64,000 nucleotides of DNA, from the NCBI GenBank assembly GCA_016192525.1, contig JACPTZ010000017.1, positions 1-64,000 on the forward strand. The letters run 5' to 3'. This stretch comes from Planctomycetota bacterium (GTDB taxonomy: Bacteria > Planctomycetota > MHYJ01 > JACPTZ01). Under the pieces are notes generated by a model, which was given only the letters and a program-made list of their open reading frames with translations, made no database searches and was not told where the DNA came from. The translations under genes were made by a program, and so were the position numbers. This document shows positions 46,370 through 59,585 of this stretch, one piece after another (within the stretch, counting starts at the first letter, position 1; every line of letters begins with the position of its first letter).

Positions 46370-46975
46370 AGAACCCGCCGATGATGCCCGCGGCGAGGAG
46401 GAGGGTGATCCACTCGAAGTACTTCTCGATGAGGGCCCTGACGCGCTCCCCGAAGAGGTAGAGCAGGGTCGCCACCAGGAAGAATCGACCCGCGCGGCCG
46501 ATCGCCGAGGCGAGAACGAACGGCAGGAAGGCGATCTGACAGACTCCCGCCGCGATGGTGAACACCTTGTAGGGGATGGGGGTGAAGGCGGCGATGAAGA
46601 CGCACCAGAAGTCGTACTTCTGGTAGAGATTCTGGACGTTGTCGAACGTCTCCTGGCTGAAAATGTAGGGGATGAAGACTCCCTTCACCGCGAGCCAGAG
46701 CCCCCATCCGATTCCGTAGCCGAGGATGCCGCCGAGGACGGAGCCTGCCGCGCTGATGAACGCGTGGCGGAAGGCCTTGGTCCGCTCCGCCAGGGTCATG
46801 GCGATCTGGAGCACGTCTGGCGGGATCGGGAAGAACGAGGATTCGATGAAGGCGATCCCGAACAGGGCGAACTCCGCTCTCGGATGCGCCGCGAGCGAGA
46901 TCACCCAGTGGTAGAGCCGCCGGAGCGGGTTCCGGGAGGGCGAAGGGGGGGGGGGAGCCGCCGGGGCCGCAGCAT
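46344..46975 (-). CDS. DedA/YqaA-type membrane protein; start disturbed by a poly-G tract
   Basis: Small SNARE-associated (DedA/YqaA-like) membrane protein: PLRRLYHWVISLAAHPRAEF, FIESSFFPIPPDVLQIAMTL, an amphipathic GSVLGGILGYGIGWGLW segment and TPIPYKVFTIAAGVCQIAFL. Such proteins act in lipid flipping or membrane homeostasis. No start codon lies near the expected N-terminus in its own frame. The ATG at 46975 (MLRPRRL) would fit if the G11 run at 46945-46955 were one base different. Translation may depend on the overlapping upstream gene, or the tract may be mis-sequenced. Confidence 0.75.
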
Positions 46976-48964
46976 CGGCCGGGGGTAGTTCCCGGCCGCG
47001 GGCGAATCCGGCGCCAGGGCGAGGGTCAGGGAGCCCGGCCGGTAGACCGACTCCGCCGCCTCGACCAGGGCCGCCCGCGCGGGGTCGTCGGCCCGACCCA
47101 CGATCACCACCTTCGGCGGGGGATGGAGGTGATACGCCGCCGCGAGGCCGAGCGTGGCCGCGAACGTGCCGTATCCGGGCAGGACCCCGGCGAAGGCCTG
47201 GAGGATCTCTCCGGCCCGCTCCGCATACTTCGGCGCGTCCGTGAGGGCCGCGAGACGGTCGTTTACGAGCGCCGCCACCGCGTTTCCGCCCGGCATCGGA
47301 GCGTCCTCGAAGTTTTTTTTGCGGGCGCCGAGCAGCCCGAGGTCCGGCTCCGGACCCGACGGGTCGCGGTCGAAGTACCCCCCGCCCTTCGCGTCCCACA
47401 GCCGGGCGTCGCAGTACGCCACGAGGTCGCGGGCGATGTCGAGATACCTCGCCTCCCCCGTAGCGGCATACGCGTCGGTGCAGGCCCATGCCGTCCAGAC
47501 CTGGTCGTCGAGCAGCCCCTCCCCGCGGGCCACCCCGTTTCCGTCGGCGTGGAGCATCCCCTTTCCCGGCCGGTAGCACCTCGAAAGGAGCCGGTCGAGA
47601 CTCTTGCGGGCGAGGGCGGCGCACTCCGGTCTCCGGAGCGACCCCGCCGCCTCGAAAAAGGCGCCCGCCATCATCGCGTTGTAGGCGGTGAAGAGCGTGG
47701 GGTCGACGAACGGTGCCGGCGACCGCTTCGCCCGAACCTCCCGGAGCACGGCGAGCGACCGCCCGAGCGAGGCCTCCACCTCCGCCGGAGTCGCTTCCAC
47801 CGTGTTCGCCACCTCCTCCAGCGACGCCACCCGGTAGAGCACGTTCCGGTCCACCATCTCGTGGAGGTCCCGCGGGACGGTGCGGATGTTGTAGGCTGCG
47901 ACGAAAATCTCCCGGTCCCTCCCCGCGAGCGCCGCCTCGATTTCCTTCTTCGTCCAGGTGAAGTAGGAGCCGTCGTCTTCGAGCGAGATGTCGGCATCCT
48001 GAAAGGCGTAGAAGCCGCCCTCCCGGGGATCGCTCAGCACTTCCGTGACGAACCGGATGATCCCCTCGGCCACCGACCGGAGGCGCGGATCGCCGGTCCA
48101 TCGCGCGGCGTGCGCGTAATTGCGGAGGAGTTCCGAATTGTCGTACGCCATCTTCTCGAAGTGGGGGACATGCCAGTACGGATCGACCGAATACCGGTGA
48201 AATCCGCCGCCGACGTGATCGTGCACGCCGCCCTGCGCCATCGCCTCGAGCGTGAGCCGCACCACGGCGGCCATCCGCTCGTCCTTCTGCTCCACGGCGC
48301 GCCAGAGGGCGAACTCCACGGCCCCGGTGCTCGGGAACTTCGGGCCTCCTCCCTTGCCGAAGCCGCCGTGCTCCGGATCGAACCGGTCGTGGAGCGCATC
48401 GGCGAGCGCCTCCAGGAGCGGCGATTCCACCTTTCCGCTCCGGGGCGACTCCTCCTCGTGCGACGCGATCTGCGAGGCCATCCGCTCGGCCTGTTCCCGG
48501 ACCTTCTTCGGGTCGTCGCGATACGTCTTTGCGAGTTCACGCAGGAGCCGCTTCAGGCCGGGGCGCCCCATGGCGTCGTCGGGCGGGAAGTAGGTCCCGC
48601 CGAAAAAGACCCTTCCCTCCGGCGTGAGGAACCCGGTGAGCGGCCATCCGCCGCCGCCCGTGAGCGCGCCGATCACCGTCTGGTAGCGGCGATCGACGTC
48701 CGGTCGCTCGTCCCGGTCCACCTTCACCGGCACGAAGTTCTCGTTGATGAGTTTCGCGATCTCGGCGTTCTCGTACGACTCGCGGTCGATGACGTGGCAC
48801 CAGTGGCACCAGACGGCGCCGATGTCGAGCAGGACCGGTCGATCCAGCTTCTGCGCGAGGGCGAGGGCCTCGGGGCCCCACTCCTGCCAGGCGACCGGCT
48901 GGTCTTTGGCGCTGCGGAGGTAGGCGCTCGCGGAGGTGGAGAGGCGGTTTTCGAGTGGGGGCAT
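46901..48964 (-). CDS. DUF255 thioredoxin-domain protein (YyaL/spermatogenesis-associated-20-like)
   Basis: A 687-residue protein with an N-terminal thioredoxin-like DUF255 domain (VLLDIGAVWCHWCHVIDRES; INENFVPVKVDRDERPDVDR; FFGGTYFPPDD) followed by a six-hairpin glycosidase-like alpha/alpha barrel. Both CHWCH cysteines are present, unlike the UGA-containing neighbours. The last 30 residues become Pro/Arg-rich after a G11 run, so the normal C-terminus may be lost. Upstream, the same frame encodes a hydrophobic stretch (LIPALLVLLLSAGSQDVP) that could be a signal peptide lacking a start. It is downstream of the two UGA genes. Confidence 0.9.
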   Translation of the reverse strand: MPPLENRLSTSASAYLRSAKDQPVAWQEWGPEALALAQKLDRPVLLDIGAVWCHWCHVIDRESYENAEIAKLINENFVPVKVDRDERPDVDRRYQTVIGALTGGGGWPLTGFLTPEGRVFFGGTYFPPDDAMGRPGLKRLLRELAKTYRDDPKKVREQAERMASQIASHEEESPRSGKVESPLLEALADALHDRFDPEHGGFGKGGGPKFPSTGAVEFALWRAVEQKDERMAAVVRLTLEAMAQGGVHDHVGGGFHRYSVDPYWHVPHFEKMAYDNSELLRNYAHAARWTGDPRLRSVAEGIIRFVTEVLSDPREGGFYAFQDADISLEDDGSYFTWTKKEIEAALAGRDREIFVAAYNIRTVPRDLHEMVDRNVLYRVASLEEVANTVEATPAEVEASLGRSLAVLREVRAKRSPAPFVDPTLFTAYNAMMAGAFFEAAGSLRRPECAALARKSLDRLLSRCYRPGKGMLHADGNGVARGEGLLDDQVWTAWACTDAYAATGEARYLDIARDLVAYCDARLWDAKGGGYFDRDPSGPEPDLGLLGARKKNFEDAPMPGGNAVAALVNDRLAALTDAPKYAERAGEILQAFAGVLPGYGTFAATLGLAAAYHLHPPPKVVIVGRADDPARAALVEAAESVYRPGSLTLALAPDSPAAGNYPRPMLRPRRLPPPLRPPGTRSGGSTTG
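46945..46955. repeat. Homopolymer G11 tract
   Basis: Eleven consecutive G lie at the junction of the DUF255 and DedA-like frames. One base more or less would fuse or reset either frame. Confidence 0.9.
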
Positions 48965-49067: not shown

Positions 49068-49436
49068 TCACTTCCCCGGGTTGGACCCGGCCTTCGCCCG
49101 CGCCGAGGCGATTTTCTTCAGCATCTCCGGCGGCGGGATGAATCCGATCTGGGTTTCGAGCACCTTTCCGCCGGACGAGAGCAGGCGCACGTCCGGGATG
49201 TACGTCACCCCCAGCGAACCGGCGGTCTCGGGATGGCGGTCGGTGTTGACGCGAACGCACACGAAATCCTTCGCCAGTTCGGCGTCCACCTGCGGGTTGG
49301 AGAGCGTCACGGCCTCCAGCTGGCGGCAGGAGGGTCACCAGTCGGCGGTGAGATCGACGAAGAGCATCTTGCCGTCCTTCGTCGCGCGCTCCAGCCCCTG
49401 TTCATAGTCCTCGATCCACTCCACGGTGCCCGGCAT
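49068..49436 (-). CDS. Thioredoxin-fold selenoprotein (UGA codon 34, U-P-S-C)
   Basis: Reading TGA at 49337-49335 as selenocysteine gives a 122-residue thioredoxin-fold protein: MPGTVEWIEDYEQGLERATK, MLFVDLTADW-U-PSC-RQLEAV, then FVCVRVNTDRHPETA and GVTYIPDVRLLSSGG (cis-Pro region IPD). The UGA falls exactly on the first redox cysteine of the CxxC motif after a Trp, as in thioredoxins. AGGA precedes the ATG at 49436. Everything downstream of the UGA keeps strong coding character to the TGA stop at 49068. A stem-loop follows the UGA. A short protein starting after the UGA would lack half the fold. It lies 19 nt from the paralogous gene upstream. Confidence 0.85.
49299..49337 (-). promoter_or_regulatory. 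Candidate bacterial SECIS, gene at 49068
   Basis: The UGA (49337-49335) is followed by 17 nt and then GGAGG-C-CG-UGA-CG-C-UCUCC (49317-49299): a five-pair lower stem including one G-U, one C-C mismatch, two upper pairs and a three-base loop. Distance matches the other two UGA genes. Confidence 0.6.
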
Positions 49437-49455
49437 GGTGAGTTCCTTTCGCCGC

Positions 49456-49806
49456 TTACCCCGCTTTGGCGCGGGCGTCCTCGATCATCTTCAGCATCGC
49501 CGGAGGCGGCACGAAGCCGATCTTCTGCATGAGGACCTGTCCCTGGGAATTGAGGATCCTCACATCGGGGATCTGCAGCGCCCCAAGGGCCGATGCTGTA
49601 TCCGGGTCCTTCATCATGTCGATGTGGACCGCCACGAAGTCTTTCTGGATCTCCCCCACGACCTGGGGGTTGGAGAACGTGACGCTCTCCAGTTTCTTGC
49701 AGGCCCCTCAGCCCTCCGAGTCGATGTCCAGCAGGACCTTCTTGCCGCCCTGTTTCGCGGCCTCGAGCGCTTCCGGGTACGAGGTCATCCAGTTCAGCCC
49801 GGCCAT
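49456..49806 (-). CDS. Thioredoxin-fold selenoprotein (UGA codon 33, U-G-A-C)
   Basis: Reading TGA at 49710-49708 as selenocysteine gives 116 residues: MAGLNWMTSYPEALEAAKQG, KVLLDIDSEG-U-GAC-KKLE, SVTFSNPQVVGEIQKDFVAV, then ALQIPDVRILNSQGQVLMQK. It is a clear paralog of the next gene (shared SNPQV, IPDVR and IGF(V/I)PPP segments). The UGA is at the first position of UxxC. AAAGGA precedes the ATG at 49806. The stop is TAA. The tandem pair plus DUF255 makes a run of three thioredoxin-fold genes, probably one operon handling thiols or protein disulfides in the cytosol (no signal peptide). Confidence 0.85.
49672..49710 (-). promoter_or_regulatory. Candidate bacterial SECIS, gene at 49456
   Basis: The UGA (49710-49708) is followed by 17 nt and then GGAGAGCG-UCA-CGUUCUCC (49690-49672), an eight-pair uninterrupted stem (one G-U) with a three-base loop. 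It is the best folded of the three. Confidence 0.65.
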
Positions 49807-50051
49807 GGACGTTGTCCTTTCAAGTGGATGCTGGCACGTCTATGCTAGCCTCGGGCCGGCGGGGCGGCAACAGTTTCTTGATCCCACCCCCCGACCTCAC
49901 GCCGAACGGGCCCCGGGCGGCCGGCGGGCGGGTCCCGACCTCGTGGCCCGGACGGGGCCGTCCGGGGTCCGAAGTCCTCACCCGTTCACACATCTCTCTG
50001 CCTCCGACGACCGGTCGGTCCCCGCCCCTACCCTCGTCGGAAGGCACACCC

Positions 50052-58457: not shown

Positions 58458-59585
58458 ATGCCGCTCCCCGCCCTTCGCCCTGTCCTCGTGGCCGCCGTGC
58501 TCCTCGCCGCCCTCGCCGCCCGTTCCGCTTTTGGGGGGAGCGAGACCCCGCCCGAGGGGCCGCCCTGGAAGCGCGACTTCCTCGAGGCCCAGAAGGAGGC
58601 CCTCAAGGAGGGGAAGCCGATTTTCATCTACCTCACGAAGACCTACTGACCCCACTGCGTCGTCGTGGAGAAGCAGTTGCTTCCCAACCCCGATCTGAAA
58701 CCGGTCTACGACAAGGTGGTCTGGCTCTACGTCTTCCGCGACTTCTCCGCGAAGGGGGACGACCTCAAGGCGGAGCGCACGTCGCTCCGGTTCGGGCTGT
58801 CGTCCTACCCGCAGCTCTTCCTCGTCGATCCCGAATCGCTCGAAACGATCGGCGAGACCGGTCGCGAAGTGGATACGTTTCTGAATGCCGTGCGGAACGC
58901 CCACGTCCGCAAGGCGAGGGACCTCAAGGCGCTGGAACGGGTCCAGCAGGCCGACTCCCGGGCCGAGGAGCTGGAGAAGAAGGACTCGGTTGAACTCGCG
59001 AAGAAGTACTTCGCCGACGAAGACATCGTCGTCCGCACCCGGGCGCTCCGCATCCTGGCCGAGAAGGAGCCGGGTCTCGTGGCGGCGAAGGCGAAGGACC
59101 TGCTCGAGATCGAGAACGACACCTTCCGCTATGAAGTGTGCAAGGCCCTCAAGAAGGCGGGCGATGTGAAGGCCGCGCGCGCACTCGATGAGGTGGCGCA
59201 GAATCCGAAGGGGAGCCGAAACCCGAATGTGCTCTCCTCGGAGGCGGCCGCCGCACTGGAGACCTGCGGAGACATGAAGTCGATCGCGGCCCTCGCGCCG
59301 AGGATCACCCGGGGGGACTACAAGAACAGCGGGACGCGGATCGCCATCGATTCCGTGATGGGGATTGTCAAGCGGTTCCCGAAGGCGAAGGGCGAGGCGA
59401 AGGATGTTCTCCGACAGGGATTTCCGGAGCCCTGCGATCCCAAGGAGAGCGACAACCTGCGGAACATGTGCGAGGCCTTCGCGAAACACCTCCACGACTG
59501 TCTCGAGGATCTCACCGGAAAGAAGGTCCCGTTTCCGGATCCGTACGACGCCAGGGGGCGCGAGCGACTGATGAAGGCGTGGTGA
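58458..59585 (+). CDS. Exported thioredoxin-fold selenoprotein with HEAT-like tail (UGA codon 64, U-P-H-C)
   Basis: Reading TGA at 58647-58649 as selenocysteine joins two parts into one 375-residue protein. N-terminal signal peptide (LPALRPVLVAAVLLAALAAR), WKRDFLEAQKEALKEGKPIF, IYLTKTY-U-PHC-VVVEKQLL, then SSYPQLFLVDPESLETIGET (cis-Pro, SYP) completes a thioredoxin fold. HEAT-like helices follow (ADEDIVVRTRALRILAEKEP; ALETCGDMKSIAALAPRIT). AAGGAGA precedes the ATG. The UGA is the first redox position of UxxC. It lies between HEAT paralogs D and E, which suggests a shared extracytoplasmic role. Confidence 0.88.
58647..58685 (+). promoter_or_regulatory. Candidate bacterial SECIS, gene at 58458
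   Basis: The UGA (58647-58649) is followed by 17 nt and then GGAGAAGC-AGUU-GCUUCCC (58667-58685), seven pairs with one bulged A and a four-base loop. Same GGAG start and spacing as the other two. Confidence 0.62.

What the first reader, a model, noticed from the sequence alone, without database searches (positions are those of the whole stretch)
49456..49806. Second, tandem UGA-containing thioredoxin-fold paralog
TGA at 49710-49708 gives U-G-A-C. Two adjacent paralogs both having UGA at the aligned redox position makes sequencing error very unlikely. Tandem selenoprotein thioredoxins next to a Cys-containing DUF255 protein suggest a dedicated selenol/thiol relay.
Basis: partly seen in the sequence, partly recalled or inferred. 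Interest (0 to 1): 0.82.

Follow-up and report, generated by a model that had tools for sequence, protein, structure and literature searches.

The report
Twin selenium-containing thioredoxin-like genes
Two neighbouring genes of an uncultured Planctomycetota bacterium very probably read a UGA 'stop' as selenocysteine in the active site of small thioredoxin-like proteins; this is a known kind of protein, here part of a large lineage-specific set, and the proposed electron relay with the next gene is not supported.

Summary
Gene A (49806..49456, -) has an in-frame UGA at 49710-49708 giving U-G-A-C. Gene B (49436..49068, -) has UGA at 49337-49335 giving U-P-S-C. Both are Thioredoxin_7 proteins, 48-50% identical across the UGA. 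The selenocysteine (Sec) reading is strongly supported. In 100 distinct homologous domains examined, 52 carry UGA at the first catalytic position, all 52 with the resolving Cys kept; 44 carry Cys there. Coding composition and purifying selection continue past the UGA. A hairpin follows the UGA in Sec genes beyond what their protein sequence explains, and not in Cys homologs. The genome holds selA and a truncated selB, and nine UGA-bearing members of the family. Against it: selC and selD were not found in this 82%-complete assembly, although relatives of the class have both. Individually, the hairpin of A is borderline and that of B not significant. The 'dedicated relay' with the DUF255 neighbour is unsupported: no Sec-thioredoxin lies beside six relatives' DUF255-type genes. 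Sec thioredoxins, tandem Sec thioredoxins and planctomycete selenoproteins are all in print; this is a new member of a known kind, notable mainly for the size of the family in this class.

The parts
49456..49806 (-). Gene A: 116-residue thioredoxin-like protein with UGA at codon 33 (U-G-A-C)
   Evidence: Thioredoxin_7 6.9e-14; AlphaFold model pLDDT 93.1; nearest solved fold DsbD gamma
49708..49710 (-). In-frame UGA of A, aligned to the first catalytic Cys of homologs
49671..49691 (-). SECIS-like hairpin of A, 9-bp stem, loop starting 25 nt after the UGA
   Evidence: synonymous null p 0.050
49815..49820 (-). AAAGGA ribosome-binding-like site of A
   Evidence: sequence
49068..49436 (-). Gene B: 122-residue tandem paralog with UGA at codon 34 (U-P-S-C), ends in UGA
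   Evidence: Thioredoxin_7 7e-18
49335..49337 (-). In-frame UGA of B
49298..49318 (-). SECIS-like hairpin of B, 6-bp stem, 9-nt loop starting 22 nt after the UGA
   Evidence: synonymous null p 0.133, not significant alone
49444..49449 (-). AAAGGA ribosome-binding-like site of B
   Evidence: sequence
46901..48964 (-). Downstream DUF255 / Thioredox_DsbH protein with C-H-W-C (Cys, no Sec); may start further upstream
58458..59585 (+). Third UGA-bearing Thioredoxin_7 gene of the window (UGA 58647-58649, U-P-H-C), with an N-terminal signal-peptide-like stretch and HEAT repeats

Best explanation
A and B are co-oriented, probably cytosolic (no signal peptide seen), thioredoxin-fold selenoproteins of the Thioredoxin_7 group. 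UGA33 in A and UGA34 in B are decoded as selenocysteine; the hairpin just after the codon is the expected recruiting element for SelB carrying Sec-tRNA. In the folded protein the selenol is the attacking residue and the Cys three residues on is the resolving one (UxxC); the selenenylsulfide would be reduced by thioredoxin reductase or low-molecular thiols. They would work as general or stress-related disulfide reductases. Shown here: UGA position, continued coding and selection past it, Sec/Cys exchange with homologs, predicted fold, selA and partial selB, and the group-level hairpin. Inferred: Sec insertion itself, redox activity, electron donor, substrates and cotranscription.
For: Of 100 distinct domains aligned, 52 have U at the first catalytic position with Cys at the second in 52 of 52; 44 have CxxC, 2 DxxS, 1 CxxS, 1 AxxA. 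Downstream pN/pS is below 1 in 24 of 24 pairs tested, and A/B show pS 0.56, pN 0.33. Hairpin against a synonymous-codon null: p<=0.05 in 25 of 52 Sec genes and 2 of 45 Cys genes; score difference p 1e-11, and at most 1.8e-4 with one sequence per genome and label. selA 572 bits. selB missing only its N-terminus at a contig edge. In the own genome 9 of 16 family hits carry UGA, all at the catalytic position. tRNA-SeC(tca) by ARAGORN in 13 of 14 relatives' loci checked. selD over cut-off in 22 of 30 genomes. B itself ends in UGA, so UGA is not globally reassigned. Sec and Cys switch at least 4 times on supported branches.
Against: selC was not found in the own genome by Rfam, by a model of 13 relatives' selC or by pattern. 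The only selD-like hit of any strength is a thiamine-phosphate kinase. The assembly is 82% complete, and selC and selD lie on one fetched stretch in some relatives, but absence by assembly gap is an assumption. The hairpins of A (p 0.050) and B (p 0.133) are weak alone. As folded, A's 3-nt loop has no G; opening one pair gives a loop starting with G. No expression or mass-spectrometry data.
Confidence: 0.92

Rival explanations
1. UGA at this site is decoded, but as cysteine, by a variant tRNA (selC*-like tRNA-Cys) rather than as selenocysteine.
For: The own genome lacks a detected selC but has a long-arm, tRNA-Sec-like tRNA-Cys with U73. A selC* tRNA-Cys class, some with UCA anticodon, is described (PMC7609411, passages read).
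Against: Its anticodon is GCA, which reads UGU/UGC, not UGA. Two of the four genomes with it also have a strong tRNA-Sec hit (G008, G013). The Sec synthesis enzyme selA is present.
Confidence: 0.03
2. A and B are ordinary stop-terminated or decaying genes: the UGA ends translation, or is a sequencing error or pseudogene.
For: UGA is a normal stop in this genome (B ends in UGA); a GTG start with a 67-residue frame exists after A's UGA.
Against: UGA at the same column in 52 distinct sequences, purifying selection after it, little-changed third-position GC; the product before UGA would be a fragment of a thioredoxin fold without its active site.
Confidence: 0.03
3. A, B and the DUF255 neighbour form a dedicated selenol/thiol relay.
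For: Same strand, 19-nt gap between A and B, DUF255 following B closely; DUF255 has its own thioredoxin domain with C-H-W-C.
Against: No Sec-thioredoxin near DUF255-type genes in 6 of 6 relatives' loci; no DUF255 match in 7 of 7 loci around other Sec-thioredoxins. Promoter scan of the region found nothing, which is uninformative.
Confidence: 0.08

Closest known systems
Bacterial Sec-thioredoxin (Trx, PF00085, UxxC) and Sec thiol:disulfide interchange protein (PF13098, UxxC), as listed in PMC13188914 Table 1 (passages read)
   Same: Thioredoxin-fold protein, Sec at first and Cys at second catalytic position
   Different: A and B match Thioredoxin_7 best and stay below the curated cut-offs of every NCBIfam model listed
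Trx7/PDZ selenoprotein, NF041199 (CxxU in PMC13188914)
   Same: Thioredoxin_7 domain, Sec-bearing family
   Different: A and B are single-domain, UxxC rather than CxxU; 29.8 and 38.0 bits against a cut-off of 300
Brachyspira tandem Sec.1/Sec.2 thioredoxin-like cluster (PF13192; PMC5330540, passages read)
   Same: Tandem Sec thioredoxin-like paralogs in one gene cluster, with bacterial SECIS
   Different: Other Pfam family, other motifs (CxU, UxC); the cluster includes a Cys paralog
DsbD gamma domain (1uc7, 1vrs)
   Same: Nearest solved fold (TM 0.78-0.81)
   Different: Periplasmic domain of a membrane protein, C-x-x-C (recalled); A and B are free-standing without signal peptide

Membership tests
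Bacterial selenoprotein | In-frame UGA aligned to a conserved redox Cys of homologs | tested here: met
   52 U and 44 C with the second Cys kept, of 100 distinct domains
Bacterial selenoprotein | Coding and purifying selection continue past the UGA | tested here: met
   24 of 24 pairs pN<pS; GC3
Bacterial selenoprotein | SECIS hairpin directly downstream of the UGA | tested here: inconclusive
   Met for the group; A p 0.050, B p 0.133 alone
Bacterial selenoprotein | selA, selB, selC, selD in the genome | tested here: inconclusive
   selA yes, selB truncated, selC no, selD no in an 82%-complete assembly; relatives have selC and selD
Bacterial selenoprotein | Selenium in the protein | not testable with these tools
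   needs 75Se labelling or mass spectrometry
Thioredoxin_7 (PF13899) | Score over Pfam gathering cut-off | tested here: met
   A 52.2, B 65.0 bits against 27
Thioredoxin fold | Beta-alpha order with active site at the start of a helix and a conserved Pro (cis-Pro of thioredoxins, recalled) | tested here: met
   Model pLDDT 93.1, helix from residue 34; DsbD gamma hit; P80 in at least 90% of rows
Thioredoxin equivalog TIGR01068 | Score over NCBIfam cut-off | tested here: not met
   31.0 and 45.7 bits against 96.8
trx7_PDZ_seleno NF041199 | Score over NCBIfam cut-off | tested here: not met
   29.8 and 38.0 bits against 300

The most novel reading that the evidence does not exclude
A class of uncultured Planctomycetota has expanded Thioredoxin_7 oxidoreductases into a large, largely selenium-based redox set (nine UGA members in this incomplete genome; family hits of up to 32 per genome in the class, many with UGA), with repeated Sec/Cys swaps and tandem copies. 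A and B would be a cytosolic UxxC subfamily not covered by current named models.
Probability: 0.5. Interest if true: 0.5.

Novelty: new member of a known kind. Interest (0 to 1): 0.36.

Why it matters
Standard gene calling truncates or loses such genes at the UGA, so a set of redox proteins of this class is probably mis-annotated. The family offers many natural Sec/Cys homolog pairs, including within one genus, for asking when selenium is worth its cost in a thioredoxin-fold enzyme.

Tried and rejected
DUF255 relay: looked for conserved adjacency and found none. selC in the own genome: Rfam, a phylum-specific model and a pattern; none found. The Rfam hit over cut-off in the own genome is a tRNA-Ser by ARAGORN. 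selD in the own genome: the best hit is thiL. Rfam scan of the window at gathering threshold: nothing; the permissive scan gave only chance snoRNA/miRNA matches, so the hairpin claim rests on my own test. MFE z-scores of the hairpin region alone are modest (A -1.5, B -0.4). The quick tree first split A from B, but holding them together gave a better likelihood (p-AU 0.851), so the tree does not argue against a tandem duplication. The closest Cys homologs of B outside the genome (G016, G003) are long open frames carrying this domain, not DUF255 fusions by reading (no domain search was run on them). A plasmid search gave mostly thioredoxins and DsbD among the rows shown. A genome-contig scan with A+B found no relative, which may leave out the window's own genome.

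Full report
What is there. On the minus strand, A (49806..49456) and B (49436..49068) lie 19 nt apart, each after an AAAGGA site. Each is open through a single internal UGA, at 49710-49708 (A, U-G-A-C) and 49337-49335 (B, U-P-S-C). A ends in UAA and B in UGA, so UGA is still a stop in this genome. Both score over the Pfam cut-off for Thioredoxin_7 (52.2 and 65.0 bits against 27). They are 48-50% identical over their length. A folds confidently as a thioredoxin in prediction (pLDDT 93.1, pTM 0.85, 26-sequence alignment), nearest to DsbD gamma.

Source. The host genome (G000) is a 4.18-Mb assembly in 227 contigs, 82% complete. Two contigs of relative G006 and one of G027 have the lengths of records titled Planctomycetota (WSZJ01000014.1, WSZJ01000058.1, JASMLP010000101.1). 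G006 is of the same class as G000, so the phylum is Planctomycetota by inference from contig lengths.

Is the UGA a sense codon? A search of 59 genomes with B found relatives in 50. In the subset examined, 100 distinct domains aligned: 52 have UGA at the first catalytic position, all with Cys at the second; 44 are CxxC; 2 DxxS; 1 CxxS; 1 AxxA. The 52 come from 20 of 30 genomes in that subset. Downstream of the UGA, pN is below pS in 24 of 24 pairs with at least 55% identity; A against B gives pS 0.56, pN 0.33. On a quick tree of 96 domains Sec and Cys change 14 times (shuffled mean 31.9), at least 4 on supported branches. Within one genus (g7) the second gene of a tandem is Sec in G006, G008 and G014 and Cys in G011 and G018 (orthology judged from position and tree, not tested further).

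Hairpin. Bacterial SECIS elements lie just after the UGA and have a small apical loop with a G (PMC1088965, passages read). I scored the best hairpin whose loop starts 18-26 nt after the codon, against synonymous recoding that keeps the protein. Sec genes: 25 of 52 at p<=0.05, mean score 14.8 observed against 7.1 expected. Cys genes: 2 of 45, 7.1 against 6.3. The difference in score has p 1.1e-11; with one sequence per genome and label (20 against 21) the p over 200 draws is at most 1.8e-4. A alone has p 0.050 and B p 0.133. A's hairpin as folded has a 3-nt loop without G.

Machinery. selA is complete (572 bits). selB is a 542-residue frame that begins at the contig edge and covers profile positions 92-581 (203.9 bits against a cut-off of 242 for the whole protein). 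selC and selD were not found. Among relatives, ARAGORN calls tRNA-SeC(tca) in 13 of 14 loci, the exception being L072, a tRNA-Cys; 13 of 13 wider stretches carry it. selD passes its cut-off in 22 of 30 genomes, mostly with its own UGA. In one search, selC lies on the same fetched stretch as selB in 2, selA in 6 and selD in 4 of 13 stretches. I therefore read the absence of selC and selD here as an assembly gap, which is an assumption.

How many. With a family alignment the own genome has 16 hits, 9 of them with UGA, all at the catalytic position; one (C177) has two UGAs in U-E-K-U-K-D-C. In the class, hits at E<=1e-5 reach 32 per genome (G006), Cys members included (row list cut off). Across named genomes the DNA of A/T-D-W-U-G-x-C-K was found in at least 119 stretches; of the 80 listed, 67 encode this domain at E<=1e-3. 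Titles among the 80 include Planctomycetota, Poribacteria and Melainabacteria.

Mechanism. Most likely a cytosolic UxxC disulfide reductase: selenol attacks, Cys resolves, the selenenylsulfide is reduced by the thioredoxin-reductase or thiol pool. These steps are inference from the thioredoxin fold. The DUF255 relay is not supported: 6 of 6 DUF255-type loci of relatives lack a Sec-thioredoxin nearby, and tblastn of the DUF255 protein found nothing at E 1e-6 in 7 of 7 loci around other Sec-thioredoxins, three of them from the own genome.

Known or new. Sec thioredoxins (UxxC) and more than 80 prokaryotic selenoprotein families are in print (PMC13188914 and PMC9312934, passages read). A tandem cluster with two Sec thioredoxin-like genes is described in Brachyspira (PMC5330540, passages). 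Selenoproteins and Sec machinery are described in Planctomycetes (PMC4807772, passages). The two reviews have no match to 'planctomyc'. I found no paper on a large Thioredoxin_7 Sec set in Planctomycetota in the listings of four searches, nor any paper holding both 'selenoprotein' and 'Poribacteria'; the library holds open-licence papers only. No NCBIfam model reaches its cut-off for A or B. Hence: new member of a known kind, with the lineage-level expansion as the part worth a specialist's look.

Noticed in passing
window 58458-59585 (+): Third UGA-bearing Thioredoxin_7 gene in the window (UGA 58647-58649, U-P-H-C) with a signal-peptide-like start and HEAT repeats; GC3 0.97/0.94 around the UGA.
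   Followed up: partly
L002 1500-1593 (-), i.e. G000:C164:70432-70525; also L072, L318, L319: A long-variable-arm tRNA with GCA anticodon, U73, 7-bp acceptor and a tRNA-Sec-like 6-bp D stem. A model of it hits 6 of 40 genomes: four strongly, all of this class (G000, G018, G013, G008), and two weakly (G030, and G035 where the hit is a tRNA-SeC). It resembles selC* tRNA-Cys, which the review passages read (PMC7609411) report from other phyla and as 8/4, not 7/5.
   Followed up: partly
L154 (G000:C177:12384-12671): Thioredoxin-like domain with two in-frame UGAs, U-E-K-U-K-D-C, a possible double-Sec active site.
   Followed up: no
L148/L153 (G000:C79): Another tandem pair: one copy with D..S at the catalytic positions (no redox residues), the next with U-H-G-C.
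   Followed up: no
G014:C207 and G014:C85: Two strong tRNA-Sec hits (77.2 and 73.4 bits) in one genome.
   Followed up: no
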